From the IMG/VR virus record IMGVR_UViG_3300024258_001041, positions 1-33,390 of that record: a stretch of 33,390 bases of DNA; one strand, 5' to 3'. This stretch comes from a virus. Below are positions 6,761 to 33,307 of this stretch, piece after piece. Both the position numbers and the translations under genes were made by a program. The notes under the pieces were generated by a model, which ran no database searches, was not told where the DNA came from, and saw only the letters and a program-made list of their open reading frames with translations. Position 1 is the first letter of the stretch. Every line of letters starts with the position of its first letter.

Positions 6761-8448
6761 TGCCAAATTTAGTAGAAGTAAATTACGAACAAACAGGAGA
6801 GAGTAAATCTACCAATGAGTTTGGTATGAGAGATATGCAGGAAAAAGCTTACGAGCAAAGAGATGCAAAATACTTACTCCTTAAAGCACCACCAGCTTCT
6901 GGTAAATCAAGAGCATTGATGTTTATAGCACTTGATAAACTTATCAATCAAGGTGTTAAAAAAGTGATTGTAGCTGTTCCTGAAAGGTCTATTGGTGGTT
7001 CATTTGGCACAACTGATTTAAAATCTTATGGGTTCTATTCAGATTGGGACATAAATGAGAAATATAATCTTTGTACAACATCAGATAGTAAAAGTAAGGT
7101 TCAAGCTTTTAAAGATTTCTTAGATAGTGATGAGAAAATTTTAATCTGTACACATGCAACACTTCGATTTGCATTTGAACAACTAAATGAGTCCAAGTTT
7201 AATAACACTCTACTGGCAATAGATGAATTTCATCATGTTTCAGCAGATGGAGAAAATAAGCTTGGAGAAGTTCTAAGAAACCTAATTGAAAAATCATCGG
7301 TACATATTGTAGCTATGACTGGTTCATACTTTAGAGGAGATAGTGTTCCTGTACTACTTCCTGAAGATGAAGCAAAGTTTACAAAAGTTACTTACAACTA
7401 CTATGAGCAGTTAAATGGATATGAATATCTTAAATCACTTGGTATTGGGTATCACTTTTATCAAGGTAGATATACAACTGCATTAGATGAAATACTTGAT
7501 ACTGATAAAAAAACTATTTTACATATTCCTAATGTAAATTCTGGTGAGTCCACAAAAGATAAACATAGAGAAGTTGGAACTATCTTAGATATTATCGGTA
7601 GAGTTAAAGAGATTACTGAAGATGGAGTAATCATATTACAACGACATACAGATGGTAAGCTTTTAAAAGTTGCTGATTTAGTTAATGATGACCAAAAAGA
7701 GAGAGATAAAATCATTACATATCTGAGAAATATTACTAGTGTAGATGATATGGATTTAATCATCGCTCTTGGAATGGCTAAAGAGGGATTTGATTGGCCT
7801 TATTGCGAACATGCTTTAACTGTTGGATATAGAAGTTCTCTTACTGAAATCATACAGATTATTGGTCGTGCCACTAGGGATAGTGAAAATAAAACAACCG
7901 CACAATTTACAAACCTCATAGCTCAACCTGATGCCAATAATGATGAAGTGAAACTATCTGTAAATAACATGTTAAAAGCTATTACATCATCACTACTTAT
8001 GGAGCAAGTTCTAGCACCTAGTTTTAAATTTAAACCACGATTTCCAGATGATAAAGAGCCACCTAAAAAAGGTGAGTTGAAAATCAGAGGTTATAAAAAG
8101 ATAAAAAGTGAAAAAGTCAAAGAGATAATCGTACAAGACTTAAATGATTTAAAAGCTTCTATCTTACAAGACAAAGACATGATAGGTGCTATGCCTGGGG
8201 ATATTGACCCATTGACTATTAAAGATGTTTTAATTCCTAAAATTGTCAAAGTTAAATACCCAGAGCTTAGCGATGATGAAGTAAAAGAGCTTAGTCAATA
8301 TGCATTTGTAGATAGTGTAATAAGAAATGCTGTTTTTGAAACAAATGGAGATAAAAAGTTTATACGAATGGGCTATCCCCTTCCAACCCTAAGAGAACAG
8401 AAATTGCTAGTAGTTAAGAATGAGCCAAAAATTATTAAGAATATTTGA
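6760..8448 (+). CDS. DEAD/DEAH-box superfamily 2 helicase of the cargo operon
   Basis: A 562-residue SF2 helicase. Walker A is A-P-P-A-S-G-K-S at about 43-50. Motif II is D-E-F-H near 155, the motif III region is M-T-G-S around 186, and the C-terminal RecA domain has motif VI Q-I-I-G-R-A-T-R near 367-374. It starts on the stop codon of the methyltransferase gene (ATAATG, 1-base overlap), so translation is coupled. It likely provides DNA translocation or unwinding for a restriction-like or defence complex with its two upstream neighbours. The last 25 codons lie inside the inserted IS, so the original C-terminus has been replaced. Before insertion it read F-I-R-M-G, then either a TAG or a short continuation. 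Confidence 0.8.
   Translation: MPNLVEVNYEQTGESKSTNEFGMRDMQEKAYEQRDAKYLLLKAPPASGKSRALMFIALDKLINQGVKKVIVAVPERSIGGSFGTTDLKSYGFYSDWDINEKYNLCTTSDSKSKVQAFKDFLDSDEKILICTHATLRFAFEQLNESKFNNTLLAIDEFHHVSADGENKLGEVLRNLIEKSSVHIVAMTGSYFRGDSVPVLLPEDEAKFTKVTYNYYEQLNGYEYLKSLGIGYHFYQGRYTTALDEILDTDKKTILHIPNVNSGESTKDKHREVGTILDIIGRVKEITEDGVIILQRHTDGKLLKVADLVNDDQKERDKIITYLRNITSVDDMDLIIALGMAKEGFDWPYCEHALTVGYRSSLTEIIQIIGRATRDSENKTTAQFTNLIAQPDANNDEVKLSVNNMLKAITSSLLMEQVLAPSFKFKPRFPDDKEPPKKGELKIRGYKKIKSEKVKEIIVQDLNDLKASILQDKDMIGAMPGDIDPLTIKDVLIPKIVKVKYPELSDDEVKELSQYAFVDSVIRNAVFETNGDKKFIRMGYPLPTLREQKLLVVKNEPKIIKNI
8366..8392. repeat. Left IS end: direct repeat plus inverted repeat
   Basis: Positions 8366-8375 (GAATGGGCTA) match 9521-9530 as a direct repeat. 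Positions 8373-8392 (CTATCCCCTTCCAACCCTAA) are the left terminal inverted repeat, pairing with 9512-9531. ISAs1-family elements are known to duplicate about 8-10 bp of target, which is consistent with the direct repeat. Confidence 0.65.
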
Positions 8449-9515
8449 AGAAGAGATATCAGAACAAGCAAGAAAACAAGGCAGAGTACATAGTTTACCA
8501 GTGATGATGTATTTATCAGTAATAGCGATATTAATGGGGGCAAAAAATCCTATGGAGATAACATTGTGGATGCAAGCAAATTGTAAACGCAAAGAGATAA
8601 AAAGACTTTTAGGTGTAGAGTTTTTTAAAGCACCCAAAAAATCAAGAGTATATGATTTTTTCAATATTGTAGATAAAGAGGAGCTAGAAAGAGCTTTTCG
8701 CAAATGGATAGGTACTTTTATAGAGATCACCCCAAATGAAGTACTAGCAGTAGATGGTAAAGTGCTAAGAGGAAGTGCCAATAAAAATCAAAATGCAGTC
8801 TCCATTCTTTCTGCTGTACTAGCCGAATCGAACTTGATTATTGCCCATAAAGAGATAGAGAAGAAATCGAATGAGATACCAGCATTACAAACACTAATAG
8901 GAGAGCTTGATGAGAGTTTTAGTTATGGATTTGATGCACTCAACACCCAAAAAAACGTTACTCAAGATTGAGCAAGCAGATTCATTCTTTGTTGCAAAAT
9001 TAAAAAAGAATCAAAAAGGACTTTTAGCATTCGCTAAAGAGATAGAAGCATGTTCATCGATAGACTCCTCTTTTTCTAGCGAAATTAAACAATCCAACGA
9101 TACTGTACAAAGAGAGGTGTTTGTCTGTAGTAATTGCATCTATCTCTATGGTGGTATCTCTATTGCAAGTGTCATTCGTGTTGATAAGAGTGTTAATGAT
9201 GGTGATATTCAAACACACTATTATATCTCTAATGAAACCAATGATGCTGAAACTTTTTTAAAAAAGATTCTTCAAGAGTGGTCTGTTGAGACAATGCATT
9301 TCTATAAAGATACAGCTCTTTTAGAAGATAAATGCAAAATTAACAAAGGTGCATTTAGTCTCTCTATTTTGAGAAGTTTTGTAATCAATATTTTACACCT
9401 CAATCAAGTTAGAAATATTGGTAGACAAATACGAAAAAATGCTTATGATCTTTCAGAAGCTCTTATGCTTTTTTCTATGGTCAAATTAGAATATGGCTTT
9501 TTAAATAATTATTAG
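8420..9515 (+). pseudogene. Frameshifted ISAs1-family transposase
   Basis: Two overlapping frames together make one DDE transposase. The first (8420 to about 8960) covers the N-terminal domain and the first catalytic region A-V-D-G-K-V-L-R-G. The second (from about 8907 to 9515) continues with K-K-T-L-L-K-I and the C-terminal E-W-S-V-E region with the catalytic-type Glu. Around 8910-8960 the two frames carry alternating pieces of the expected V-M-D-A-L-N-T-Q-K-K-T sequence, implying more than one small indel, about 5 inserted bases near 8930 and another near the A7 run at 8949. The net shift is +1, so this is not the -1 programmed shift some IS families use. Probably inactive. Confidence 0.75.
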
Positions 9516-9839: not shown

Positions 9840-10571
9840 ATGTATATTAATTCAGATGTAGAAGAGAAGATTGTAATTTTTACAGGTGCTGGTATTAGTC
9901 AAGAGTCTGGTATTAGTACTTTTAGAGATGTAAATGGTACATGGGAAAATCACAAAATTGATGACGTGTGTAATGAGCGCACATATAAGAAAAATATAGA
10001 CCTAGTTAATAGATTTTACAACGAGCGTAGAGCTGATATGCTTGGTAAAGAGCCAAATGAAGCACACAAAACCATTGCTAGAATACAAAAAAGATACGGC
10101 GATAAAGTATTGGTTGTTACACAAAACGTAGATAATCTTTTGGAGAAAGGCGGTTGTACCAACGTGTTACATGTACATGGTACTCTTACACAAATGACGT
10201 GTGAAAAATGTCATAACAATTACGACATAGAAGGTGATTTTACAATAGATACAGAATGTCCTAATTGTTTAGAAAAGGGTGATGCTAGACCTAATATTGT
10301 GTTTTTTGGTGGACAAGCTCCTATGTACAAATATATGCATAGAGCTTTTTCAAAACTAGAACACGAAAATAGCTCAATAGTAGTAAGTGGTACTTCTGGT
10401 GCGGTCGTGTCAATGGAATATATCTGCACTCGTCTATGTGTGTATAGTTGTTTGAACAACATGGAATCTTCTAAATATATCAATGATTATAAATTTGATG
10501 ATGTAATGTATCAAAGTGCAAGTACAGCATGGTTAGAAATTGAACAGAAATTACATAAGTTATACGATTAA
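9840..10571 (+). CDS. Phage-encoded sirtuin (NAD-dependent deacylase)
   Basis: A 243-residue Sir2-family protein. The NAD-binding G-A-G-I-S-x-E-S-G-I-S-x-F-R-D motif is at about 16-30. T-Q-N-V-D-N-L is near 100-106. The catalytic His in H-V-H-G is near 117. The four-Cys zinc module is C-E-K-C ... C-P-N-C at about 127-147. N-I-V-F-F-G follows, then G-T-S-G near 184. All core residues are intact, so an NAD-consuming deacetylase or deacylase is expected. A role in altering host proteins or NAD-based defence is conceivable but not shown. A hairpin lies in its leader, and it sits right beside the cargo insertion. Confidence 0.85.
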   Translation: MYINSDVEEKIVIFTGAGISQESGISTFRDVNGTWENHKIDDVCNERTYKKNIDLVNRFYNERRADMLGKEPNEAHKTIARIQKRYGDKVLVVTQNVDNLLEKGGCTNVLHVHGTLTQMTCEKCHNNYDIEGDFTIDTECPNCLEKGDARPNIVFFGGQAPMYKYMHRAFSKLEHENSSIVVSGTSGAVVSMEYICTRLCVYSCLNNMESSKYINDYKFDDVMYQSASTAWLEIEQKLHKLYD

Positions 10572-14674: not shown

Positions 14675-15565
14675 ATGATTAAACTTAAAATAGACCTAGG
14701 TTATAGTTCTAGTAAAATAGAATATGAAGACCGATTTATCAAGATACCAACAGCCGTTTCTTTTTATACAGACTTAGGTATCAATTATGGAGATGACAAC
14801 TCGTACGAGTTTGAAGGTGACCGATACATGGTCGGTGAACAAGCCATTTCCGAAGATGCTTTCTCTACTACAGATTACAAATTTATCCACAAATTTATCC
14901 CACTTATTATATACCACATATTAAACAAACTAAATGTTGTAGAAGATGATATGACAATTGAGCTAAGGACTGGACTTGCTATTGTAGATTGGGGAAATAA
15001 AGACGAAATAGCTAAGAGAATTTCTAAGATTGTAGTGAACAACAGAACTATCAATGTAAAGTCTGTGTTTACACCACAGGGTGGAGGCGTATACAAAGAT
15101 TGGTTAAGTAATAATCCTAAAGAAAACAAAATCTTTATTCTTGATATAGGATACAACACTATCAATGGTTTATACTTTGAAAATGGGAAAAATGTAAGAA
15201 ACAAAACAAAATCTTATCCGGGTCATGGTGTATCCACTATTGTAAAACCTTTTACGAATTACCTAGAAGCCACATATAAGATGCCATTCTCGGAACAAGA
15301 AAGTATTAAAATCTTTTTAGAAAATGATTTTAAAATGAGTGGAATTAGACAGGACAAAGTATTAGATAAGATTCAAGAGTTAAAAAAACAATTTGTGACT
15401 AAGCTTTTTAAGAGTATTCTAGTAGAAGACAAAAAAACAATGTCTATGTCGGACAAAGTAGTTATTGCCGGTGGTGGTGCTTACCTATTAGATACGGAGA
15501 AATTCCCGCATAATATTGTATTTGCACAGAAGCCTTATGAGTTTGCAAACGTGAGAGGATTTTAA
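14675..15565 (+). CDS. Actin-like ATPase, ParM-like
   Basis: A 296-residue actin-fold protein. Phosphate-1 loop I-D-L-G-Y-S-S-S-K is at residues 6-14. G-E-Q-A is near 53-56 and F-T-P-Q-G-G-G near 130. Phosphate-2 I-L-D-I-G-Y-N-T is near 152-159, and the adenosine motif V-I-A-G-G-G-A-Y-L-L near 263-272. It belongs with plasmid and phage ParM/Alp proteins that polymerise to move DNA. The following 96-residue gene begins on its stop codon (TAATG), the arrangement expected for a filament-forming ATPase with its DNA-binding adaptor. In a T4-type genome it would imply low-copy maintenance or active positioning of phage DNA. Confidence 0.78.
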   Translation: MIKLKIDLGYSSSKIEYEDRFIKIPTAVSFYTDLGINYGDDNSYEFEGDRYMVGEQAISEDAFSTTDYKFIHKFIPLIIYHILNKLNVVEDDMTIELRTGLAIVDWGNKDEIAKRISKIVVNNRTINVKSVFTPQGGGVYKDWLSNNPKENKIFILDIGYNTINGLYFENGKNVRNKTKSYPGHGVSTIVKPFTNYLEATYKMPFSEQESIKIFLENDFKMSGIRQDKVLDKIQELKKQFVTKLFKSILVEDKKTMSMSDKVVIAGGGAYLLDTEKFPHNIVFAQKPYEFANVRGF

Positions 15566-20216: not shown

Positions 20217-21187
20217 ATACTATACATATTTCCCATTGGGATTTAGATGGTTTTGGTTGCCAAATGGTCATTGGTAATTACTTATATGATACATATAAAA
20301 ATTTTTATCATAACAAAATTAATTGTGGTTATAGTAAAATTTATTTGAAATTACAAGAACTTGATGATATTCTATCTACTACAAATGTTGATGTCGTTTA
20401 TATTACAGATTTGTTATTCGAAACTAACGACTTCAACAAATTGATAATGATTATAAACCATTACATTGATGTTGACTTTGTATTCATAGACCACCATGAA
20501 TACCATGACGAAAGACTAGAAGGGTTACAATCACTCAAAGTTGCACGATGTTTAGTTTTACATAATGAGAAGATGTCGGCTACTAAAATATGTTTAAAAT
20601 ATGTGACTAAAAAATTATCATATAATGCACTTGAATCTACTCATACATTTGTAGATAGAATTGATGCTTACGATATACATCTTATAGATACACATCATTA
20701 TAAAATGGGGTTTGTTTATAATTCTCTTTTTTGGGAATATGGTCTATATAAATTCAACCAAAAATACTTCTTTAATCATGAACTAGAACAAAATGATAGA
20801 AATGTGTATAAAAAGATAGTAAAAAATAAAAATGATTACTATAAAGATAAAGAAAAAAAAGCACATATAATGAAGTCCAAAAATAAAGAGATAGTTATTG
20901 GTTATGTTGATGATTTCATTTCGTTTTTCTCACAAGAATATGCAGACTATAGTATTCACATCATTATAACAAATCATCAAAAACTTTCATTCCGTGTAAT
21001 GATGCATTACGATGATGAACAATGTAAAAGTATAAAACATACAATAATGCAAGAAGTTGAACCATTTTGTGATAGCAATGGTGGTCATTTAAGAGCATAC
21101 GGTGCAAATTTAAAAGAAGGGGTGGATACTATGTCTTTAGTAGAGACAATAGTAGAGACAATAGGTGATTTAATTGACACTTACTAA
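20213..21187 (+). CDS. DHH-family phosphoesterase
   Basis: 324 residues. DHH motifs are D-L-D-G at about 9-12, I-T-D-L near 64-67, I-D-H-H-E near 90-94 (the DHH signature), D-R-I-D-A-Y-D near 143-149, and a C-terminal DHHA1-type G-G-H-L-R-A-Y-G near 287-294. This is the RecJ/NrnA superfamily: manganese-dependent 5' exonuclease on DNA or short RNA, or cyclic dinucleotide phosphodiesterase. The location between clamp loader and helicase suggests a replication or recombination exonuclease. It starts in ATGA overlap and its end overlaps the helicase start by 14 bases. Confidence 0.8.
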   Translation: MNTIHISHWDLDGFGCQMVIGNYLYDTYKNFYHNKINCGYSKIYLKLQELDDILSTTNVDVVYITDLLFETNDFNKLIMIINHYIDVDFVFIDHHEYHDERLEGLQSLKVARCLVLHNEKMSATKICLKYVTKKLSYNALESTHTFVDRIDAYDIHLIDTHHYKMGFVYNSLFWEYGLYKFNQKYFFNHELEQNDRNVYKKIVKNKNDYYKDKEKKAHIMKSKNKEIVIGYVDDFISFFSQEYADYSIHIIITNHQKLSFRVMMHYDDEQCKSIKHTIMQEVEPFCDSNGGHLRAYGANLKEGVDTMSLVETIVETIGDLIDTY

Positions 21188-21869
21188 CGAAATATTAGAA
21201 ACGAGTATACTACAAAGTATCATAACTAACGAAGACTATTTTGGTAATGTATTTGATGTACTAGATACTACACACTTTAGTACAGCAGAAAATGTATTAA
21301 TATTTAAAGAAATTAAAGAACTTGTGGGTAAAACAGGCGAAAGACCTACGACAAAAGAAGTTGCTATGTCTATAAAAGGGAATAGAAAAATCCCCGAAAA
21401 GATTAAATCACAAGTTATATCAGGAGTTAAAAATCTTCACCTAGATTCTAAAATTAAAAATATTGATAACTTTATTGATATGACAGAAGGTTATATCAAA
21501 GATAAAGAAATTGAAATCGCTATACACAAAAGTCTTGATATTCTTGAAAGCAATGGAGATAGACTATCTATACAAAACCTTTTTGAAAAAGCACTCTCCA
21601 TCACTATCGATAATGATGTAGGCACTAACTACAATAAAGATTTTGATGATAGAATGGAAAAATATAGAGCTAGGGCTATGGGTATTACTACAGGATTAGC
21701 AAGTGCTGATGCTATCTCCGGTGGCTTTATTGACAAAACCTTAAGTGTGTATTGCGGAAGTGCTCATTCCGGTAAATCGATTTTTAAAGAAACAAAATTA
21801 AATCTATATGTTAATATAGATTTAAGCAAAAAGATATTAGAATACATGGAGAAGAAAAACAACACGTAG
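21174..21869 (+). CDS. 41: N-terminal half of gp41-like helicase fused to a 30-residue N-intein
   Basis: 231 residues from TTG 21174. Residues 1-201 match the first part of T4 gp41 (DnaB-like hexameric helicase): an N-terminal helical domain, linker, then S-V-Y-C-G-S-A-H-S-G-K, the Walker A up to its Lys201. From Ser202 (TCG 21777) the sequence leaves the helicase and reads S-I-F-K-E-T-K-L-N-L-Y-V, fitting intein block A: nucleophile at 1, acidic at 5, Thr at 6, alternating hydrophobics. It stops 30 residues after the junction. The rest of the intein and the helicase are encoded at 23269-24600. Without trans-splicing the P-loop is broken. Confidence 0.85.
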   Translation: MTLTNEILETSILQSIITNEDYFGNVFDVLDTTHFSTAENVLIFKEIKELVGKTGERPTTKEVAMSIKGNRKIPEKIKSQVISGVKNLHLDSKIKNIDNFIDMTEGYIKDKEIEIAIHKSLDILESNGDRLSIQNLFEKALSITIDNDVGTNYNKDFDDRMEKYRARAMGITTGLASADAISGGFIDKTLSVYCGSAHSGKSIFKETKLNLYVNIDLSKKILEYMEKKNNT

Positions 21870-21882
21870 AAAGGATGTTTTT

Positions 21883-22938
21883 ATGATTCATGGGGAATTT
21901 TATAAGCATAAAAACGAAGAAGAAAAACAATATATAGAAAGTGTACCATACAGTAGAAAAACAACTTATATGAGAAATATGAGAAATCATAACATAGATT
22001 TTGATTTTGTCATGTTTAAAACATATATAGAGTGGAGGAGAATAAACCCATCAATGGATAAAACCGACGATTATTATCAAGCTCTATATGGTGACGATTG
22101 GAGAAAACAATGGGTATACCAAAAAAGAAAACAAGACAAAAAAGGGATTTATGATGGGTTTAGTGATGCGGAAATATTATATGTAAAAGAACAAAACTAT
22201 CAAATATACAAATACATGAAGGATATGCGTAACCATGGTATAACTTTTAGTATTGACAAGCATAAGATTTATATAGAATGGCGAAATGACCATAGAGCAG
22301 ATTCTAGTTCCTTAAAGTCCTATACTATCAAATACGGCGAAGAATTTGGAAAAGAATTACATAAGATAAAGATAAAAAAATGCACAATGGACAAAAAGTG
22401 GTATATAGAGAAATACGGCGAAGAATTAGGGGAAGAGAAATACCAAGAGCGGTCAAAGAATATTAGTGATTCTGCAAAATCATATAGAGTTATGCATGGC
22501 GAAGAGAAATACCAAGAACTTTTGTTGAAGAAATCTATGAGTAAAGATGGGTTTATTCGTAGGTATGGTAAAGATAAGGGGATTGAAAAATTTAACGATT
22601 TTTGTAGAAGAAACGCTTACACTAATACCATAGAATACTATATAGAAACTCATGGTGAAGAATTAGGGAAAAAGAAGCATTTAGAATGGAGAAGTGATTG
22701 TGGTATTCCCACAAGAGCTGAATACTTTATGGATGATGATACTGATTATGAGGAAGCTTGTTTAAAATTAGGTGAGAGACAAGCCACTTTTAGCTTAAAA
22801 AAATGCATAGAAACTCATGGTGACGTTAAAGGTATAGAGGTATTTGAAGATAGACAACAGAGATGGCAACAGACATTAGATGACAAACCACAAGAAGAAA
22901 AAGATAGAATAAACATGACAAAACGCCCCACATTATGA
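21883..22938 (+). CDS. YGEExGxxK-repeat protein, putative homing-nuclease DNA-binding part
   Basis: 351 residues, strongly basic, built from degenerate repeats around Y-G-E-E-L-G-E-E-K-Y-Q-E-R (clear copies near 164, 184, 207, 229, 262 and 313) with charged helices between. Such repeats are found next to nuclease domains in phage free-standing homing endonucleases, and probably bind DNA. No catalytic nuclease motif is visible within it. The next gene overlaps by 4 bases and looks GIY-YIG-like, so the two may form a two-chain enzyme. It lies exactly between the helicase halves with an AAAGGATG ribosome site. Confidence 0.65.
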   Translation: MIHGEFYKHKNEEEKQYIESVPYSRKTTYMRNMRNHNIDFDFVMFKTYIEWRRINPSMDKTDDYYQALYGDDWRKQWVYQKRKQDKKGIYDGFSDAEILYVKEQNYQIYKYMKDMRNHGITFSIDKHKIYIEWRNDHRADSSSLKSYTIKYGEEFGKELHKIKIKKCTMDKKWYIEKYGEELGEEKYQERSKNISDSAKSYRVMHGEEKYQELLLKKSMSKDGFIRRYGKDKGIEKFNDFCRRNAYTNTIEYYIETHGEELGKKKHLEWRSDCGIPTRAEYFMDDDTDYEEACLKLGERQATFSLKKCIETHGDVKGIEVFEDRQQRWQQTLDDKPQEEKDRINMTKRPTL

Positions 22939-23294
22939 TAGGGTTTATTACAAATGTACTAGAAGATACACAAGTCGAATGTCTGTTGTATTATGTAAAG
23001 TTTTATAACGATGATATGGTGTTTTGGAAAATAGGAGTAACAACAAGGTCTATACACAAACGGTTCGGTAGTGATGAGTATATAAAATATAATTATAACT
23101 TATCAAAAAACAATTTGTATTACACTAAGATGGATGCATATAATTGTTTCAAAATGGAACAAGAGATATTAAGGGCACATAAAGAAAATAGGGTTATTAT
23201 AGACATTCCAAATTTCAAAAGCACAGAGTGTTTTAGCACGGACATATTTAAAGAACAAAAGGATTTTGATGAGTTCACAAATAGAGTATTATAA
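22935..23294 (+). CDS. GIY-YIG-like nuclease domain protein
   Basis: 119 residues. The order L-L-Y-Y-V-K-F ... F-W-K-I-G-V-T-T-R-S-I-H-K-R-F-G ... M-E-Q-E-I-L ... S-T-E-C-F is the pattern of a GIY-YIG-like fold seen in many phage proteins: two strands carrying the tyrosines, K-I-G-x-T, Arg, catalytic-type Glu, then T-E-x-F. It starts in an ATGA overlap with the repeat protein and ends inside the start region of the helicase C-half. It probably supplies the cleavage that spreads the split-intein locus. The exact homing specificity is unknown. Confidence 0.6.
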   Translation: MIGFITNVLEDTQVECLLYYVKFYNDDMVFWKIGVTTRSIHKRFGSDEYIKYNYNLSKNNLYYTKMDAYNCFKMEQEILRAHKENRVIIDIPNFKSTECFSTDIFKEQKDFDEFTNRVL

Positions 23295-24600
23295 TAAGGC
23301 GGAGGATTACGCACTAGCCGGTACAATGGTTGATATAATAAAAGAGAGGGGATTAGATTCATCATTAATCGATATGGTAGTAGATACACTTAGTACACGT
23401 ATAGAGAAGAATACTATTTCTATAGAAGATTTGTTTGGTTTCTATGGTATAGAGAACAAGGACAAACTACAGATGTTCCCTATGGTTGACACATTAATGG
23501 TGGAGACCCCATATAACGGTTTACAGAAGATAACACATTTAATACAAAAACCAAAAAGCGACGTATATGAAGTGGTCACATCAAGTGGTAGAAAAGTACA
23601 CGTTGCCGATAGACACATATTTGAAACACATGACAACCAAGGTGTTTTTTGTAATGAGTTAAAAGTTGGTGATTATATTAACACAAAAAGTGGTATGGAA
23701 CAAGTAACAAAGTGTGAATATTACACAAACGATTATGTTTATGATATTAGCATTGCAGCCCCACATTGGTTTTATGATAGTGAAGGTTTTGTTCATCACA
23801 ATTCAATTGCGTTAACACATACTGCATCCGTAGGAATTTCTAACAAAAAGAATGTGTTGTTTATCACATTGGAGATGCCAGAAGAAGATATTGAAAAGCG
23901 AATTGATGCTAATTTATTGGGGTTGACAACAGAAGAGTTAGAGACCATTGACATAGAGGACATTAGAACAAAGTTCGACAATATAAAAGGGGATTTGGGT
24001 GAGCTAAGAGTTAAAGAATATGGCTCTGGTGAATTCAACACAATAAAGATGAAAACGATACTTAATGACTTATATAATGAGGATAAATTTAGACCTGATA
24101 TGATTGTCATAGATTATATCACTTTAATGTCCTCTAGTAGGGGTTCCTTACAAAGTATAGGCAATACCAATACATACTATAGATATGTATCGGAAGAGCT
24201 TCTAACGGCATCTAAGAAGCTTATAAACTCTAATGGTAAAGTAGGGGTTGCTATTGTATCAGCTGCACAACTCAATAGAAATGGTTACGGAAATGTAGAT
24301 GCTGGTATGCAAGATATTAGTGAAGCTATTTCTATTATGCAAACGGCTAATAATAGTATTTTCTTAATCACCAATGAAGAGATGAAAAAGCAGGGTATTA
24401 TGTTATGGAAATGGGTAAAAAATAGAAATAGGGGTAAACTAGAAACACTTACCGTCAATATAGATTACCCAAGGATGACATTTAGTGATTTTGACCAACA
24501 GAAATTATCAAGTGGTCAACAAGACAACTTAAAAAATGTAATTAATAACGATGATTTTAGTATGGAAAATGACATAGACACAAGCGCACTTAAGTTTTAA
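23269..24600 (+). CDS. 41: C-intein plus C-terminal half of gp41-like helicase
   Basis: 443 residues from ATG 23269, chosen for AAAAGGA 6 bases upstream; TTG 23266 is adjacent. Residues 1-68 are an extra helical leader. About 69-178 form the intein body: V-E-T-P-Y-N-G-L-Q-K-I, block B G-R-K-V-H-V-A-D-R-H-I-F (His115; the usual Thr is Ala), L-K-V-G-D-Y-I, block F Y-D-I-S-I-A-A-P-H-W-F-Y and block G F-V-H-H-N with terminal Asn178 (AAT 23800). Ser179 is the +1 residue and completes Walker A. The C-extein of 265 residues matches gp41: F-I-T-L-E-M-P-E-E, K-R-I-D-A-N, V-I-D-Y, A-A-Q, and a terminal L-K-F as in T4 gp41. Confidence 0.88.
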   Translation: MSSQIEYYNKAEDYALAGTMVDIIKERGLDSSLIDMVVDTLSTRIEKNTISIEDLFGFYGIENKDKLQMFPMVDTLMVETPYNGLQKITHLIQKPKSDVYEVVTSSGRKVHVADRHIFETHDNQGVFCNELKVGDYINTKSGMEQVTKCEYYTNDYVYDISIAAPHWFYDSEGFVHHNSIALTHTASVGISNKKNVLFITLEMPEEDIEKRIDANLLGLTTEELETIDIEDIRTKFDNIKGDLGELRVKEYGSGEFNTIKMKTILNDLYNEDKFRPDMIVIDYITLMSSSRGSLQSIGNTNTYYRYVSEELLTASKKLINSNGKVGVAIVSAAQLNRNGYGNVDAGMQDISEAISIMQTANNSIFLITNEEMKKQGIMLWKWVKNRNRGKLETLTVNIDYPRMTFSDFDQQKLSSGQQDNLKNVINNDDFSMENDIDTSALKF

Positions 24601-24655
24601 GCTATATATTATGTGATTTGTGGTAAACTTCACGACCAAAAACAAAAAAAGGAAT

Positions 24656-25156
24656 ATGATGATCACAAGTTGTAGTTATGAAAAAGATTATGAAACGGAA
24701 CCTAGAAATGGGTATGGTTTAATTGGTGTACTAGACAAAGACGATGATATTATGTACATTATTGTCGAGGAAGAAACAGAACTACGATACACGGGTCTTT
24801 CTGTAATCAATAGACTACGTGAAGACCGTAACGCTTTTATAGGGAGTATTCATCAACTACAATCATACTTTATGATTAAGTCTTTTTTTGATGATAAGAT
24901 TGTGTTTAGTGAATACCATGAGGATGTTACCAAAAATGTAGACAACAAAAATACTATTAAATTTGTAGACTTCCATAACTTTATCATGGAAAATACAGAT
25001 ATTATTAATATATACATTTATGACAATAAGAAAAACCTACTTATTGTAAAACCGGAAGGTTGTGATATGATAGAGCTTAACTACAAAAGCAAAAGTGATA
25101 TCAAAAAATACTTTAAAGAAAATAGCATTAATGTTGATAGATACGGTCTTGTATGA
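24656..25156 (+). CDS. Hypothetical protein upstream of DNA polymerase
   Basis: 166 residues from ATG 24656, with ATG 24659 equally possible; AAAAAAAGGAAT precedes them, so the in-frame codons before are not needed. Alternating strands and acidic loops, no cysteine motif, no transmembrane helix. It is coupled to the polymerase by an ATGA overlap. In T4 the translational repressor RegA precedes gene 43, but this protein is longer and I do not see RegA features. A GTTTTAAGCTATATATTA promoter-like stretch is at 24594-24611. Confidence 0.55.
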   Translation: MMITSCSYEKDYETEPRNGYGLIGVLDKDDDIMYIIVEEETELRYTGLSVINRLREDRNAFIGSIHQLQSYFMIKSFFDDKIVFSEYHEDVTKNVDNKNTIKFVDFHNFIMENTDIINIYIYDNKKNLLIVKPEGCDMIELNYKSKSDIKKYFKENSINVDRYGLV

Positions 25157-28074
25157 TACAATTTGAAAATATAGTGGATGGGAAGACACCGGTTATACGA
25201 TACTATGATACAAAAAAAGGGGAAAGTTTTTATAGACCTATAACATACAAACCAAAGTTGTATGTGAAGTCACCAAACCCAAATGCTAAGTATAGATACA
25301 TTCTTGACCAAAGCATCATGTTAGATGAGAAAACCTTTGATTCGGTAAAAGAGTCAAATGACTATAAAAAACAATTTGCTTCTATGGATAATAAACCATT
25401 TTACGGTGAGACCAAACCAAAGTACCAGTTTATTAGAGACCACTTCTATTTCAAAGAAGAGGGTTTCCACAATGACCTTAATATTTGGTACATAGATATT
25501 GAAACAGAAATCAAGGGTGCATTCGAGAGCCCTTATCTAGCTAGAAACCCTATAACTCTAATACAATATTATGACAACCACGAAAATATATATTATGTTT
25601 ATAGCTTTAAAGAAGAGTATGAGAACAAAGACCTAGAAAAAGAATTAAATGCTGTAATATCACATATGTGTTTCAAGGATGAAGTTACAATGTTGTTACA
25701 ATTTGCGGATGATATCAAAGAGAAGAATCCTGCGGCAATGGTTGCATGGAATGGTGAAAAGTACGATTATCCTTATCTTTATAATAGATATGAGCGTTTA
25801 AAGTTAGGGGCTAAGAGATTATCACCTATTGGTATGGTCAATAAAAAAGAACTAAGAGATTACTCTCCTAAAATGGTAGATGGTGAGGTCGTTAAAGAAT
25901 ACACATATAGATTTGAAGGGATTTATCTACTAGACTTAATGGTTATGTATAAGAAGTTTACATTTGTAACACAGACCTCTTATTCACTTAGCAACATTGC
26001 TAAAGTAGAACTAGGTGATGATAAAGTAAATTACGAGGAATTTGACAATTTACAAGAAGTGTACGATAAAGATTATAAGACATTTGTTGATTATGGCATT
26101 AAAGATGTAGAGTTGATAAAAGAGATAGATGCTAAACATTCACTTAGTTCACTTATGATTATGATTGCTTTTAAGATGGGGATTCCTATGGATGAAGCAT
26201 TAGGTACTGTTACACCATGGGGTATATACGTAATCAATACGGCTTATTCTAAAGGGATGATTTGTCCTAATGATGGTGGAAATAAAGTTACGTTATCAAG
26301 CGAAGAGATGATGGAACAATTTATTAAACATGAACAAATGGATATTATACAAGGGGTTAAAGACCAAAAGAAGAAAAAAGATAAGTATGTTGAATTTTTC
26401 CAAGGTAATGTTAGTGAGAGTCAATATCAAAAAGTATTCACAAGGGGTGCATGGGTAGAGGTACCAGAAAAAGGGAAACACAAATATATAATTTCCGTAG
26501 ACTGGGCATCACTTTACCCATTAATACTCATAATGAACAACCTTAGTGCCGAAAAGATTTTACACGATGATGAAATTAGAAGAGACCCTACTCTATCCGA
26601 AATCTGTGATTTTTTAAAAGGTCACCAAGACAGTGAAGGGATACAACTACAAAAAGATTTTAATAAAGATTCTTTGGTACAAGGGATAAAAGATGGTTTA
26701 CGGAAGAATGTATACGATACATTTGATAAGATGGGGGAATACGAATCATATTTAAAAGAGAAAAACCTTTCTTGTAGTGTTAATGGTGTATTTACAAAAA
26801 ATGATGAAATCGGGTTTATCCCGACAATGGTCAAGGATATTTTTTTAGAAAGAAAGACACACAAGAAAAAGATGATTGCTTATAATGTAAGGGGTGAGTT
26901 GATAAAAGGTTTTCTGACAAAAGATAATGTTAATACTGAATCTACGACTATAAAAAACCCATTAGAATATACCGAATCGGATATTTCTTCTATGAATACG
27001 GACGATTTAAAAACATTGTTTGATAAATGTGAATATTTGTCTAATAATGAAAATACAGAACAGATGACTAGAAAGATTTTAATTAATAGTTTATATGGTA
27101 GTCTAGGGAATCAGCACTTTGTTTTATATAATGTTGATGTGTCTAATGCAATTACCGCAGGTGGTAGATTCTACAATCAATTAGTATTATACAAAATAGA
27201 TGATTTATTAAGAGCAAAATCAAAGATTGATAAACCTTATTTGGTGTACGGTGATACCGACTCCGGATATTTTTCACTAGAAAATATAGTAGAAAACCAC
27301 AAAAAATTGGAAGGTAAAAGTGTACTAGATAAGATATCATTTTGTGATTCATTTTATGAAAAAATCATACAACCTAAGATACAAGAGTATCTCATGAGTG
27401 CTAGTGATAGATTGAACGTATTTGATAAAGATGCTATGTCTATGGATAGGGAAATTATTGCTGACTGTGGTATATTTGTAGCGAAAAAAAAATACATCAC
27501 AAGGGTTTTTGATAATGAGGGTGTAGTATACGATATACCAAAAACAAAAATCATGGGTCTTGAAATCATTAGGTCAAGTACACCTGCATTTTCAAGAAAG
27601 TATTTAAAAGATGCTATACCTATGTTGTTGGATATGGAACAAAGTGACTTGACTACTTGGTTGGTAGATGTAAAAGACAAATTCTTTGAAGCTGATGTTG
27701 CGGACATAGGAAAAGTATCCGGTGTCTCTAATCTTTCATTTGATTTACACAAGAGCAAATCTATACCTATCGCATCAAGAGCATCTTTAGTACACAACTA
27801 TTATATAACTAAAAACAAAAAGTTATCAAAGTTTAACCTTATAACAACAGAAGACAAAATAAAACTTGTGTATCTAAAACAACCAAACCCTTGTGGTAAT
27901 CAAGATTGTGTAGGGTTTGTCAATCCTATGTTCATTGAAGAAGAAGGATTAAGTGAATACCTAGATAAAGAAATAATGTGGGAGAAATATTTCCTTAAAC
28001 CTTTACAAATTATGATTGATAGCTTGGGCTGGACTACTGACACTATTCCTAGCATTGATATGGACGAATGGTAA
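25153..28074 (+). CDS. 43: Family B DNA polymerase, T4 gp43-like
   Basis: 973 residues, somewhat longer than T4 gp43 (898). The proofreading exonuclease has D-I-E-T with Asp115 and Glu117, Exo II W-N-G-E-K-Y-D-Y-P-Y near 197, and Exo III Y-G-I-K-D-V-E near 316. The polymerase domain has motif A V-D-W-A-S-L-Y-P with Asp450, motif B K-I-L-I-N-S-L-Y-G-S-L-G near 641-652, and motif C Y-G-D-T-D-S with Asp701/Asp703. All catalytic residues are present, so it should be an active replicative polymerase with proofreading. It starts in an ATGA overlap and ends before a recurring promoter motif. No intein is seen in this gene. Confidence 0.93.
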   Translation: MIQFENIVDGKTPVIRYYDTKKGESFYRPITYKPKLYVKSPNPNAKYRYILDQSIMLDEKTFDSVKESNDYKKQFASMDNKPFYGETKPKYQFIRDHFYFKEEGFHNDLNIWYIDIETEIKGAFESPYLARNPITLIQYYDNHENIYYVYSFKEEYENKDLEKELNAVISHMCFKDEVTMLLQFADDIKEKNPAAMVAWNGEKYDYPYLYNRYERLKLGAKRLSPIGMVNKKELRDYSPKMVDGEVVKEYTYRFEGIYLLDLMVMYKKFTFVTQTSYSLSNIAKVELGDDKVNYEEFDNLQEVYDKDYKTFVDYGIKDVELIKEIDAKHSLSSLMIMIAFKMGIPMDEALGTVTPWGIYVINTAYSKGMICPNDGGNKVTLSSEEMMEQFIKHEQMDIIQGVKDQKKKKDKYVEFFQGNVSESQYQKVFTRGAWVEVPEKGKHKYIISVDWASLYPLILIMNNLSAEKILHDDEIRRDPTLSEICDFLKGHQDSEGIQLQKDFNKDSLVQGIKDGLRKNVYDTFDKMGEYESYLKEKNLSCSVNGVFTKNDEIGFIPTMVKDIFLERKTHKKKMIAYNVRGELIKGFLTKDNVNTESTTIKNPLEYTESDISSMNTDDLKTLFDKCEYLSNNENTEQMTRKILINSLYGSLGNQHFVLYNVDVSNAITAGGRFYNQLVLYKIDDLLRAKSKIDKPYLVYGDTDSGYFSLENIVENHKKLEGKSVLDKISFCDSFYEKIIQPKIQEYLMSASDRLNVFDKDAMSMDREIIADCGIFVAKKKYITRVFDNEGVVYDIPKTKIMGLEIIRSSTPAFSRKYLKDAIPMLLDMEQSDLTTWLVDVKDKFFEADVADIGKVSGVSNLSFDLHKSKSIPIASRASLVHNYYITKNKKLSKFNLITTEDKIKLVYLKQPNPCGNQDCVGFVNPMFIEEEGLSEYLDKEIMWEKYFLKPLQIMIDSLGWTTDTIPSIDMDEW

Positions 28075-28147: not shown

Positions 28148-28572
28148 ATGGATATGAATTACATAACAGAAGAAGTACTAACTAAATTAGGTGCTGATAA
28201 AGAATGCAAAGCATGGTGGATAAGAAATGAACTTGATGGATTTCCTGTTTTAAAATTAAAAGCTATTAAAGGAGATTGCCATGGATACATTGCATCGTTA
28301 AAAGAAATTTTCTATAACAATACTTATGATGACAATGGTAATTGTTTAACTTTTAAAGATTCTAAAGGTTATGAACAGACTTATACTTATGACGAAAACT
28401 GCAATTGGTTAACTTATAAAACATCTGATGGTTATAGTTTAACTTATACTTATGATGAAAAAGGCAATTTAAAAAGTGACAATGGAGATATATACGAGTA
28501 CAAACAAAAAAGGCAAAGGTTTGATTTTGACAAAAAAATAACAAAACAATTTTAAATATTCCTAATTTTTGA
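28148..28572 (+). pseudogene. YD-repeat protein, short copy with 3' frameshift
   Basis: Starts M-D-M-N-Y-I-T-E-E-V-L-T-K-L like the other family members. It keeps the N-terminal domain (A-W-W-I-R-N-E-L ... I-K-G-D) and has only three T-Y-D-x-N-G-N units. The current frame ends at 28555, but the family tail (L-T-K-N-N-K-T-I-L-N-I-P-N-F) is present in another frame and ends at TGA 28570-28572, so indels in A-rich stretches near 28500-28545 shifted it. The domain may still fold. Upstream ACTTACGAAATAAAA is shared with the remnant at 17200. Confidence 0.65.
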
Positions 28573-28642: not shown

Positions 28643-28804
28643 ATGAAAGAAAATAAATTATATCAAATATATGTGTTTGATGATTATGGTAAAGAAAGAA
28701 AAGAGTGCCAAGTGTTCGCAAATAGTGTAGTACACGCAAAGAAAATAGCAAAAGGTATCCGTAGTTATAAAATATCAAATATAGTAGAAGTGAGGGGTGT
28801 ATAA
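28643..28804 (+). CDS. Small hypothetical protein, 53 residues
   Basis: ATG 28643 follows a GAAGGAAGATAAG ribosome site and the shared leader module. The product is basic with a strand-strand-helix look: Y-Q-I-Y-V-F-D-D-Y-G, then A-N-S-V-V-H-A-K-K-I-A-K-G-I. Its end coincides with the deletion junction of the following YD-repeat pseudogene, so its last codons may be altered by recombination. No family recognised. Confidence 0.5.
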   Translation: MKENKLYQIYVFDDYGKERKECQVFANSVVHAKKIAKGIRSYKISNIVEVRGV

Positions 28805-29104
28805 TGGACTTAGTGGGTTTCCTACATCAAGATTAAAAGATATCAAAGGAGATTATAATGACTATATTTTGTGGCTGAAAGATAAGTTCTATTATAGTAC
28901 ATACGATACCTATGGAAATTGTTTAACTTATAAAAATTCTAAAGGTTATAGTTGTGATAAAACATATGATTCCTATGGTAATTGTTTAACTTCTAAAGAT
29001 TTTGTTGGTAATGAATTTATTAGTACATATACGAGTACAATAAAGACAACGGATTAGTTTTGACTAAAAATGGTGAAGAGATTTTAAACATACCTAATTT
29101 TTGA
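28804..29104 (+). pseudogene. 5'-deleted, frameshifted YD-repeat copy
   Basis: Family homology begins abruptly at N-G-L-S-G-F-P-T-S-R-L-K-D-I-K-G-D-Y, corresponding to residue 28 onward of the intact copies; the first 27 codons are missing. Two T-Y-D-x-Y-G-N-C-L units remain. The frame stops at 29057, but the family tail (N-G-E-E-I-L-N-I-P-N-F) lies in another frame to TGA 29102-29104. The 5' junction fuses it to the end of the 53-residue ORF (GTG 28797 is the only in-frame start). Confidence 0.65.
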
Positions 29105-29176: not shown

Positions 29177-30246
29177 ATGGATAAGAAACAACAAGCACTA
29201 TTTGATGGTTTGAACACTCTATGTGATACAAACGAAGCGTTTTATTTTAGTGAGCAGAAATATCTTTTAAGGTACACAATTAGAAGTTTTTCTTATAGAC
29301 TAGCATCATATAGTGAGTTTAGTATCCCTTTTGCGAAAGACTGTAGAGGTACATCATTTGTATTAGATGATGAAACTGGTAAATGGGAAGTGTTTACGAG
29401 AGCATACAAGAAGTTTTTTAATCTTTCGGAGGGAATACCAAAAGAAGATTATATGGCTCAATATCAACCATTAAGTTCTTATGAGAAACTAGATGGTTCT
29501 ATTATATTTGTTGGAGTTATAGGAGATACATTAATTACAAAATCAAAAACTTCAATCAATTCAGAACAAGCTAGATTGGCACAGAGCCTATTGGATGGTA
29601 ATAAACCTCTACAAAACTTCTGTAGAGGTATTATAGAAGATGGGCACACTCCTATATTTGAATTGATTGGTAGACAAAATGTGGTAGTACTTCGATACGA
29701 TGTAGATGCCGATTTAGTATATCTAGGTAAAGCAGGTGAGCACGAAGTACCTGCTAGTGATTCGGATGGTTGTGAGCAACAAGGGATTGTATATGCTAAA
29801 CGTGGGATGAGTTATTACATACACAGGAGACGTCTAAACCTACTATAGAAGGGTATGTTGTAAGAACCACAGCCAATGAGTTTATAAAGGTAAAGGTGAA
29901 TTCATACGTGGATTTACATAGGTTAAAAGGTTCAATATCAAACAAAAAGAACCTTGCTAACCTTATATTAGACGATTGTTTAGATGATTTGCTAGGTGCA
30001 TTTAGAGAAGACCAAGTATCTATAGATTATATTTTAAAAGAGCAAGTACGCATATCACACAAATATAACCACTTGGTCGATTCTGTCACAAAATGGCACA
30101 TTCACAATAAAGATTTAGATAGAAAATCTTTTGCTATATTGACCAAGGACAAAATGGAGTTCTGCATGAGTTTATGTATGCATTTGTACAATGACAAACC
30201 TATCGATTACAAAGATTTCTTTATAAAAAACAGAATGTACAAATAG
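29177..30246 (+). pseudogene. T4 Rnl1-like RNA ligase split by a frameshift
   Basis: The first frame (29177-29848) carries nucleotidyltransferase motif I Y-E-K-L-D-G-S with Lys104 as the adenylated Lys, a C-R-G-T-S-F segment at 56-61, and motif III I-F-E-L-I-G-R. After G-I-V-Y-A-K-R (about 29803) the protein continues only in the -1 frame: W-D-E-L-L-H-T-Q, then motif IV T-I-E-G-Y-V-V and motif V K-V-K-V-N-S-Y, through the C-terminal domain to 30246. Corrected length is about 356 residues (T4 Rnl1 is 374). One missing base near 29803 explains it. No slippery site is obvious, so this is a mutation or assembly error. ATG 29896 could restart the C-terminal part only. Confidence 0.8.
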
Positions 30247-31650: not shown

Positions 31651-32397
31651 ATGGATATGAATTATATTACAGAAGAGGTACTAACTAAGTTAGATGCTTG
31701 TGAAGATGGAAAAGCTTGGTGGTTAAGAAATGAATTAAGTGGGTTTCCTGTAGATAGACTAAAAGAGATTAAAGGCGATTATAAAGAATACATTATTTGG
31801 TTAAAAGATAAGTTCTATAATTGTACTTATGATTCTAATAACAATATGTTAAGTAGAACACATTATAATGACTATATAATTAAATATACTTATGATTCTA
31901 ATAACAATATGTTAAGTGAAGTACGTCCCAATGGGAATGTGCTTAAAATGACGTATGATTCTAATAACAATATGTTAAGTGAAACATATCAAAATGGCGA
32001 TAAAATAACATATACATATGATTCGAATAATAATATGTTGAGTAAAACACATCCTAATGGTGATGTGCTTAAAATGACGTATGATTCTAATAACAATATG
32101 TTAAGTGAAACATATCAAAATGGCGATAAAATAACATGGTCTTATGATTCTAATGGAAATATGTTAAGTGAAAAATACCCGCATAGTGATATTATTAAAT
32201 ATACATACGATACTAATAATAACAAGTTAAGTGAGGTACGACATAATATAATAACGAAATATACTTATGACTCTAATAATAACAAGTTAAGTGAAACATA
32301 TTCTAATGGTGCTAAAACAACATGGGAGTATGATACAGACAATGGTGTAACATTAAAAGAAGATGGAAAGCAAATTTTACATATACCAAAATTCTAA
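31651..32397 (+). CDS. Intact YD-repeat protein, 8 repeats
   Basis: 248 residues. The N-terminal domain of about 55 residues has M-D-M-N-Y-I-T-E-E-V-L-T-K-L, A-W-W-L-R-N-E-L-S-G-F-P and I-K-G-D-Y. Then come eight units of about 21 residues of the form T-Y-D-S-N-N-N-M-L-S-E-T-Y-x-N-G-D, and a tail ending Q-I-L-H-I-P-K-F. YD repeats in Rhs and teneurin proteins build beta-cage shells. Here the protein is small and lacks a toxin domain or signal peptide. It could be a surface-binding or decoy protein; function unknown. A 75-bp perfect internal repeat shows recent unit duplication. Confidence 0.75.
   Translation: MDMNYITEEVLTKLDACEDGKAWWLRNELSGFPVDRLKEIKGDYKEYIIWLKDKFYNCTYDSNNNMLSRTHYNDYIIKYTYDSNNNMLSEVRPNGNVLKMTYDSNNNMLSETYQNGDKITYTYDSNNNMLSKTHPNGDVLKMTYDSNNNMLSETYQNGDKITWSYDSNGNMLSEKYPHSDIIKYTYDTNNNKLSEVRHNIITKYTYDSNNNKLSETYSNGAKTTWEYDTDNGVTLKEDGKQILHIPKF
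31937..32137. repeat. Perfect 75-bp direct repeat inside the YD-repeat gene
   Basis: 31937-32011 and 32063-32137 are identical, 126 bp apart, which is exactly two 21-codon units. This points to recent in-frame duplication or gene conversion within the repeat array. Confidence 0.85.
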
Positions 32398-32431
32398 AAG
32401 GATACAAAGGTACATAAAAAAAGGGAATAAA

Positions 32432-33307
32432 ATGAACATGGATTACATTACAGAAGAGGTACTAACTAAGTTAGATGCTTGTGAAGATGGAAAAGCTTGG
32501 TGGTTAAGAAATGAATTAAGTGGTTACCCAGTATCGAGATTAAGAGAAATCAAAGGGGATTATGAGGGCTATATTACATGGTTAAAAGATAAATTCTATA
32601 ATTGCACATACGATTCTAATGGAAATAAGATAAGTAAAACGTATTCTAATGGTGATGTATTTACATGGACTTATGATACAAATGGAAATGTACTAAGCGA
32701 AACACAACTCAATGGTAATGTACATAAATGGACTTATGATTCGAATAATAATATGTTAAGTGAGATATACCCTAGTGGTGGTACGTTTACATACACTTAT
32801 GACTCTAATAGCAATATAGTAAGTAAAACATACCCTAGTGGTGATGTATTTACATATATATATGATTCTAATGGCAATATGTTGAGTAAAACATATCCTA
32901 GTGGTAGAGCGTATAAATGGGTACATGACGCTAACGGAAATATGCTGAGTAAAACACATCCTAATGGTGATGTATGCACACATACATATGATACAAACGG
33001 AAACATGTTAAGTGCGACACTTCCTAACGGCAGTGTTTATACATATACTTACGACTTAAATAATAATATGTTAAGCGAAACACTTCCTAATGGTGATGTA
33101 TACGTATATACATATGATTCGAATAATAATATGTTGAGTAAAACACATCCTAATGGTGATGTATACACACATACATATGATACAAAAGGAAATATGTTAA
33201 GTGCAGTATATCCTTATATTAGTGCTCATAAATGGTCTTATAATACAGACAATGGTTTAACATTAAAAGAAGATGGAGAGCAAATTTTACATATACCAAA
33301 ATTCTAA
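32432..33307 (+). CDS. Intact YD-repeat protein, 10 repeats
   Basis: 291 residues from ATG 32432, after AAAAAAGGGAATAA. Earlier in-frame codons overlap the previous gene and are not family-like. The N-terminal domain is nearly the same as in the 31651 gene: 77 bp are identical (31666-31742 versus 32447-32523). It carries ten YD-type units with more varied positions (T-Y-D-S-N-G-N, V-H-D-A-N-G-N, T-Y-D-L-N-N-N) and the same tail Q-I-L-H-I-P-K-F. No toxin, signal peptide or catalytic motif is visible. It is the second of at least three tandem paralogues. Confidence 0.75.
   Translation: MNMDYITEEVLTKLDACEDGKAWWLRNELSGYPVSRLREIKGDYEGYITWLKDKFYNCTYDSNGNKISKTYSNGDVFTWTYDTNGNVLSETQLNGNVHKWTYDSNNNMLSEIYPSGGTFTYTYDSNSNIVSKTYPSGDVFTYIYDSNGNMLSKTYPSGRAYKWVHDANGNMLSKTHPNGDVCTHTYDTNGNMLSATLPNGSVYTYTYDLNNNMLSETLPNGDVYVYTYDSNNNMLSKTHPNGDVYTHTYDTKGNMLSAVYPYISAHKWSYNTDNGLTLKEDGEQILHIPKF

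What the first reader, a model, noticed from the sequence alone, without database searches (positions are those of the whole stretch)
21174..24600. Fractured gp41-type helicase with an atypically split intein cutting the Walker A motif
Seen: helicase sequence stops after G-S-A-H-S-G-K (Lys201, ends 21776). It is followed by a 30-residue segment with Ser1, Glu5-Thr6 and alternating hydrophobics, matching intein block A. The second gene carries block B, F and G features, ends in His-His-Asn (23794-23802), then Ser+1 (23803) and the remaining helicase. The joined exteins give 201+265=466 residues, close to T4 gp41 (475), with the P-loop restored and the same L-K-F terminus. Known: split inteins in fractured phage genes usually have N-parts near 90-100 residues; only a few atypical ones (for example AceL-TerL, N-part 25) are split so early. 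The early split, the Ser1 nucleophile and the GK|S site together make this candidate unusual. Helicase function would depend wholly on trans-splicing.
Basis: partly seen in the sequence, partly recalled or inferred. Interest (0 to 1): 0.95.

Follow-up and report, generated by a model that had tools for sequence, protein, structure and literature searches.

The report
Split intein breaks phage helicase gene
A phage's essential DNA-unwinding helicase is encoded as two separate proteins that are almost certainly stitched together by a split intein with a very short first piece, with a homing-nuclease cassette lodged between the halves; the arrangement is real but belongs to a large, partly known family, and this copy adds an unusual serine chemistry and a swapped nuclease type.

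Summary
A gp41/DnaB-like helicase is split exactly inside Walker A (GSAHSGK|S) into two ORFs. The second ORF starts with an intein C-part: AlphaFold model plus Foldseek give VidaL and the atypically split Cat intein among the best hits; His116, Asp159, His177 and Asn178 are present. The first ORF ends in a 30-residue tail at the intein position (Ser1, Thr6, block-A pattern), weakly supported by sequence alone (anchored test p about 0.006-0.01) but backed by position and synteny. The joined exteins align without a gap to intact phage helicases. No intron family was found.

The premise that the early split is exceptional is wrong for this family. IMG/VR scans gave dozens of phage ATPase genes (terminase, gp46-like, AAA+, at least five other gp41-like helicases) cut mostly at the P-loop GK|S/T by related inteins with N-parts of 14-57 residues and a homing endonuclease between the halves. 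Campylobacter phages CPt10 (intact intein) and F379 (endonuclease inserted) form a natural before/after pair.

Particular here: Ser1/Ser+1 where all 27 tallied family N-parts are Cys1, a GIY-YIG-type (T5orf172) nuclease instead of EDxHD, and an endonuclease broken into two overlapping ORFs. Trans-splicing is inferred, not shown.

The parts
21174..21776 (+). N-extein: N-terminal domain, linker and first half of Walker A (GSAHSGK) of gp41/DnaB-like helicase, 201 aa, TTG start
   Evidence: phrog_19 DnaB-like replicative helicase E 7e-22; PF00772 E 5e-6; AGGTG about 6 nt before TTG
21777..21866 (+). Intein N-part (IntN), 30 aa: SIFKETKLNLYVNIDLSKKILEYMEKKNNT; Ser1, Thr6
   Evidence: Position fixed by gapless extein alignment; anchored block-A profile p about 0.006-0.01; same place and similar length as IntN in L140 (32 aa), VmeM-32 (27 aa), F379 (30 aa)
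21883..22938 (+). Homing endonuclease, DNA-binding part: 351 aa; its residues 270-350 are the 'ERQxTFSLxxCIExxG..RWQ..L..K..EE..RIN' module shared with fractured-gene endonucleases
   Evidence: Cr30 47% identity over the last 80 residues; 80 viral loci with the module, most with an intein C-half just downstream
22935..23294 (+). Homing endonuclease, nuclease part: T5orf172/GIY-YIG-type domain, 119 aa, starts in an ATGA overlap with the preceding stop
   Evidence: PF10544 E 4.5e-4, above gathering score; 38% identical to the C-terminal domain of the F379 terminase endonuclease; model pLDDT 83 but no significant PDB fold match
23269..23802 (+). Intein C-part (IntC), 178 aa: helical extension (res. 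10-58) then HINT core with block B His116, block F Asp159, block G His177-Asn178
   Evidence: PF14890 E 2.7e-8; AlphaFold/Foldseek HINT, best hits VidaL and other inteins incl. Cat; His116, Asp159, His177, Asn178 invariant in 52 aligned IntCs
23803..24597 (+). C-extein: rest of helicase from Ser+1 (SIALTH...), 265 aa
   Evidence: PF03796 DnaB_C E 3e-12; phrog_19 E 4e-44; gapless continuation of Walker A with intact helicases F336 and DSL-LC03

Best explanation
This is a fractured replicative-helicase gene. An intein that sits in the Walker A motif (GK|S) was itself split near its N-terminus when a homing endonuclease cassette entered it. The two halves are translated separately (N-half 231 aa, C-half 443 aa). 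The 30-residue IntN docks into the IntC, which is an almost complete HINT fold lacking its N-terminal piece, and class-1 protein trans-splicing with serine nucleophiles (Ser1, Ser+1, Asn178 cyclisation) joins the exteins into a 466-residue helicase with a restored P-loop. The cassette between the halves (a DNA-binding module plus a GIY-YIG-type nuclease) is the mobility gene that would spread the arrangement by cleaving uninterrupted helicase alleles. Shown by computation: the ORFs, the HINT C-part, the extein continuity, the homology of the cassette to endonucleases in other fractured P-loop genes. Inferred: that the tail is a working IntN, that splicing occurs, that the nuclease is active and homes.
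For: Extein continuity with no gap at the junction and 2442 phage records covered over at least 80%. IntC fold and catalytic residues. IntN at the exact expected place with block-A pattern. Homologous fractured gp41 genes with the same order (N-half, endonuclease, C-half): Vibrio phage vB_VmeM-32 and contigs L044, L064, L088, L128, L140, L166. Mechanism of origin seen in Campylobacter phages: CPt10 has the terminase intein intact, while F379 has the same intein (flanks 96% identical in DNA) with 47 bp replaced by about 1160 bp carrying an endonuclease of the same two-domain type as here. No self-splicing intron family in the region or the window. Two further viral contigs carry parts of the region with 100% identical DNA (L004 = window 22431-26348, L005 = 23356-27869), so assembly error there is unlikely.
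Against: The IntN is the most divergent of the set (1.3 bits against 5.6-26.5), and its identity rests on position as much as on sequence. Ser1 is unique in the family here: all 27 distinct IntNs tallied automatically were Cys1. The [KR]-His 'NX' motif reported for Ser1/Ser+1 inteins (PMC10189870) is not evident in my alignment; His90 is preceded by Thr. The IntN + IntC complex could not be modelled. There are no expression or proteomic data. The identical contigs do not cover the N-half, and no close non-identical relative exists to test for selection.
Confidence: 0.85

Rival explanations
1. Decayed intein: the N-tail has lost (or never had) intein function, the halves are not spliced, and the helicase is supplied by another gene or by non-covalent assembly of the halves.
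For: IntN is highly divergent with an unusual Ser1; the endonuclease is broken into two ORFs, as expected of a degenerating element; the record is only a 33.4 kb fragment, so a second helicase cannot be excluded.
Against: Both helicase halves and the IntC are intact ORFs with plausible ribosome-binding sites and all C-terminal splicing residues. A helicase cut between the Walker A Lys and Ser with 30 and 178 foreign residues attached is unlikely to work unspliced. No other helicase of this family lies in the record.
Confidence: 0.1
2. The interruption is removed at the RNA level by a group I or II intron lying inside a normal intein, so that the protein is made as one chain.
For: Phage introns often carry GIY-YIG endonucleases (general knowledge).
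Against: No Rfam match at E up to 1 in 21100-24700, none at gathering score in the window. The C-half has its own start codon and ribosome-binding site. Relatives have the same separate-ORF layout, and in F379 the C-half start overlaps the endonuclease.
Confidence: 0.02
3. Assembly or sequencing artefact that chops one intein-containing gene.
For: The endonuclease is split by an apparent frame change (ORF351 and the nuclease ORF keep the spacing seen in the fused F379 protein), which could be a sequence error.
Against: Two other contigs are identical over the parts they cover. The order N-half, endonuclease, C-half recurs in many unrelated contigs and in isolated phages.
Confidence: 0.02

Closest known systems
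AceL-TerL / GOS-TerL / Cat and VidaL atypically split inteins
   Same: Early split near the intein N-terminus with a short IntN (AceL-TerL 25, GOS-TerL 37; PMC11766414); terminase members sit in phage P-loop genes; Cat and VidaL are among the best structural matches of the IntC. GOS-TerL has Ser1 (PMC11766414).
   Different: Here the extein is a gp41-type helicase, Ser1 is paired with Ser+1 (GOS-TerL: Cys+1), and the IntC has a long helical N-terminal extension.
PolB16 OarG split intein (PMC10189870)
   Same: Early split (IntN 15), Ser1/Ser+1 chemistry.
   Different: Different extein and site (PolB). The [KR]His NX motif described there could not be found with confidence here.
Fractured genes with split inteins and EDxHD (Vsr-like) endonucleases (Dassa et al. 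2009; paper not held, known from memory and as a cited reference)
   Same: Gene halves with split-intein parts flanking a free-standing homing endonuclease; gp41 is among the genes named there (memory).
   Different: The characterised gp41 inteins (gp41-1, gp41-8) are split late (IntN 88 and 94; PMC11766414). Here the split is early and the nuclease domain is of the T5orf172/GIY-YIG type.
Vibrio phage vB_VmeM-32 gp41 locus (KU160494, C-half unannotated in the record)
   Same: Fractured gp41, 27-residue IntN, endonuclease with the same module, C-half overlapping the endonuclease end.
   Different: Inserted four residues upstream (AGVN|TGKS), Cys1/Thr+1, endonuclease ends in an EDxHD-like domain.
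Campylobacter phage F379 / CPt10 terminase intein
   Same: F379: 30-residue IntN and an endonuclease with the same module plus the same nuclease type, in one ORF.
   Different: Terminase, inserted at RQ|SSKS, Cys1; endonuclease not split.

Membership tests
Class 1 intein (HINT protein-splicing domain) | HINT fold with block B His, block F Asp, C-terminal His-Asn and a nucleophile at +1 | tested here: met
   His116, Asp159, His177, Asn178 present; Ser+1; Foldseek best hits are inteins
Class 1 intein (HINT protein-splicing domain) | Nucleophile at position 1 followed by block A | tested here: inconclusive
   Ser1 present at the exact site; block-A profile score low but above chance (p about 0.006-0.01); no NCBIfam intein_Nterm match
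Atypically (early) split intein | Intein coded in two ORFs with short IntN and long IntC | tested here: met
   30 and 178 residues in separate ORFs; family IntNs 14-55
Atypically (early) split intein | Demonstrated protein trans-splicing | not testable with these tools
   Needs expression of the two halves
Ser1/Ser+1 (cysteine-less) intein subgroup | Serine at 1 and +1 | tested here: met
   Sequence
Ser1/Ser+1 (cysteine-less) intein subgroup | NX motif histidine preceded by Lys/Arg (PMC10189870) | tested here: inconclusive
   Only candidate His90 is preceded by Thr and sits two residues off the column where most relatives have His
Fractured gene with homing endonuclease | Free-standing homing endonuclease ORF between the split-intein gene halves | tested here: met
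   ORFs 21883-22938 and 22935-23294; relatives
EDxHD (Vsr-like) homing endonuclease family | C-terminal EDxHD catalytic domain | tested here: not met
   ORF351 ends where the EDxHD-like domain begins in VmeM-32, Cr30, L140, L166; a T5orf172-type ORF follows
T5orf172 / GIY-YIG nuclease | Profile match to the T5orf172 domain | tested here: met
   PF10544 above gathering score; 7 of 9 aligned relatives match; no PDB fold match
gp41/DnaB-type replicative helicase | DnaB N and C domains with complete Walker A after joining | tested here: met

The most novel reading that the evidence does not exclude
An early-split intein in a replicative helicase that works entirely with serine nucleophiles but without the canonical NX [KR]-His, belonging to a P-loop-targeting intein family whose homing endonucleases exchange EDxHD and GIY-YIG catalytic domains on a shared DNA-binding module. 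The endonuclease insertion itself is what creates early-split inteins, as the pair CPt10 and F379 suggests.
Probability: 0.45. Interest if true: 0.6.

Novelty: new variant of a known kind. Interest (0 to 1): 0.5.

Why it matters
Short-IntN split inteins are prized for protein labelling, and a published review calls the natural ones rare (PMC11766414). The scan shows that they are common in uncultured phages at Walker A motifs, giving dozens of candidates, and this one would be a rare Ser1/Ser+1 member. The CPt10/F379 pair makes the origin of early-split inteins directly testable (endonuclease insertion into an intact intein), and the shared module with two nuclease types shows how such elements can change their catalytic domain while staying at one kind of target site.

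Tried and rejected
(1) A second, degenerate block A in the C-half (residues 28-60 align to the start of the phiMAM1 terminase intein in BLAST): rejected. It scores -6 on the block-A profile, pairwise shuffles for the residues before 'ISIEDLF' are not significant, AlphaFold makes the stretch helical, and intact relatives have a longer, helical-looking insert at that place. (2) Group I/II intron: no Rfam match. (3) NCBIfam intein_Nterm: no match to the joined sequence even at E 10, whereas CPt10's intein matches. (4) Pairwise shuffle tests of the 30-residue tail against single inteins were uninformative. (5) Search of viral contigs with the N-half alone found no relative. (6) PDB fold search with the nuclease model gave nothing significant. 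(7) IntN-IntC complex modelling was not possible: only sequences encoded as they stand could be folded.

Full report
Observation. The helicase gene is in two pieces. The first ORF (21174-21869) ends with Walker A up to its lysine, followed by SIFKETKLNLYVNIDLSKKILEYMEKKNNT and a stop. The second (ATG 23269, stop 24600) ends its intein part in His-His-Asn at 23794-23802 and continues from Ser at 23803 with the rest of a DnaB-type helicase. Profiles give DnaB N and C domains and a phage DnaB-like helicase family for the two ORFs. Joined in silico, the exteins (466 aa) match 2534 phage records, 2442 of them over at least 80% of their length in one place, and the alignment with intact helicases of Campylobacter phage F336 and Synechococcus phage DSL-LC03 runs through the junction without a gap.

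Intein. The C-part is a HINT domain: PF14890 E 2.7e-8 (just below Pfam's cut-off), AlphaFold mean pLDDT 81 with strands from residue 68, and Foldseek hits that are inteins, led by VidaL and including Cat, which has an atypical split site. Block B His116, block F Asp159 and His177-Asn178 are invariant in 52 aligned relatives. The N-part is less certain. At the one position fixed by the extein boundary it scores 1.3 bits on a profile of 30 related IntNs, against 5.6-26.5 for those; this is rank 53 of 9390 12-mers in the window's proteins (about 0.006) and 0.011 by shuffling. Ser1, Thr6 and the hydrophobic pattern fit, but all 27 distinct relatives tallied have Cys1.

Between the halves. ORF 21883-22938 and ORF 22935-23294 overlap by ATGA. 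The first ends in a module that is 47% identical to a Caulobacter phage Cr30 protein. In Cr30, vB_VmeM-32, L140 and L166 this module is followed by an EDxHD/Vsr-like domain, and ORF351 stops just before it; the EDxHD label was given by motif and by eye, since Pfam has no match for the VmeM-32 protein. The second ORF is a T5orf172 (GIY-YIG-type) domain, 38% identical to the C-terminal domain of the endonuclease in the fractured terminase of Campylobacter phage F379. In F379 module and nuclease are one chain, and the number of residues between RIN and YYVKF is 24 in both when the two window ORFs are laid end to end, so the window's endonuclease looks like one gene broken by a frame change. Whether it is made by re-initiation at ATGA or is dead is open. 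Several further viral loci (L010, L012, L025, L033/L039, L043, L062, L066) carry the module fused to this nuclease type, against an EDxHD majority.

Family. A scan with the module gave 80 loci, most with an intein C-half directly downstream. A scan with terminase inteins gave about 50 distinct inteins, mostly coded in two ORFs. Together 106 distinct intein C-parts were read, with +1 = Thr 72, Ser 23, Cys 11. N-parts are 14-57 residues. The host genes are P-loop ATPases cut mostly at GK|S/T: terminases, gp46-like ATPases, AAA+ proteins, and gp41-like helicases in L044, L064, L087/L088, L128, L140 and L166. vB_VmeM-32 has a fractured gp41 at AGVN|TGKS and L008 an unsplit one at AE|TNLGKT, so gp41's Walker A holds at least three insertion sites. 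These extein assignments rest on the residues around the junction and on alignment of some helicases, not on a full annotation of each gene.

Origin. Campylobacter phages CPt10 and F379 share a terminase intein. In CPt10 it is one piece; in F379 47 bp are replaced by about 1160 bp holding the endonuclease, with 96% DNA identity on both sides. This is direct comparative evidence, although the direction (insertion rather than loss) is inferred.

Mechanism. Best supported: separate translation, association of the 30-residue IntN with the IntC, class-1 trans-splicing through Ser1 and Ser+1, and a restored helicase; the endonuclease provides mobility. Splicing itself is inferred. The [KR]-His motif reported for Ser1/Ser+1 inteins (PMC10189870) could not be located with confidence, so the chemistry may differ or the intein may be slow.

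Known and new. Early-split inteins are published: AceL-TerL (25), GOS-TerL (37, Ser1/Cys+1) (PMC11766414) and PolB16 OarG (15, Ser1/Ser+1; PMC10189870). Fractured genes with a new endonuclease family were described by Dassa et al. 2009, which could not be read here. The window adds a helicase member with Ser1/Ser+1 and a GIY-YIG-type cassette in two ORFs: a new variant of a known kind.

Limits. The record is a 33.4 kb fragment. Contigs L004 and L005 are identical to the window but begin at 22431 and 23356, so they do not confirm the N-half. No close but different relative was found, so selection could not be measured.

Noticed in passing
L094 (Campylobacter phage F379) 3165-6511 versus L089 (CPt10) 78-2273: Same terminase intein intact in one phage and split by an endonuclease insertion in its near relative: a natural before/after pair for the birth of an early-split intein.
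   Followed up: yes
L001 (Vibrio phage vB_VmeM-32) 4041-7116 and 1739-3706: Both gp41 and UvsX genes are fractured with split inteins; the gp41 C-half is not annotated in the public record.
   Followed up: partly
L015, IntN after LITGMAGIGK: A candidate IntN of only 14 residues (CFCGETEMDVEF..), about as short as the shortest characterised (15).
   Followed up: no
L120 2941-5142: One terminase C-half seems to contain a second intein further downstream (second IntC match at residues 345-453).
   Followed up: no
8420-8971 and 8907-9515: Transposase-like protein (by eye ISAs1/H-repeat type) in two overlapping frames matching consecutive parts of phrog_16731: a broken gene in the phage.
   Followed up: partly
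28148-28555, 28797-29057, 31651-32397, 32363-33307: Paralogues with a common head (NYITEEVLTKL...WWLRNELSGFP, absent or cut short in 28797-29057) and YD/Rhs-like repeats of different number, arranged in series.
   Followed up: no
29177-29848: T4 RNA ligase 1-like protein matching only positions 3-183 of 377 of its family.
   Followed up: no
14675-15565 and 9840-10571: A partition-family protein (phrog_691) and a Sir2-like protein on the phage record.
   Followed up: no
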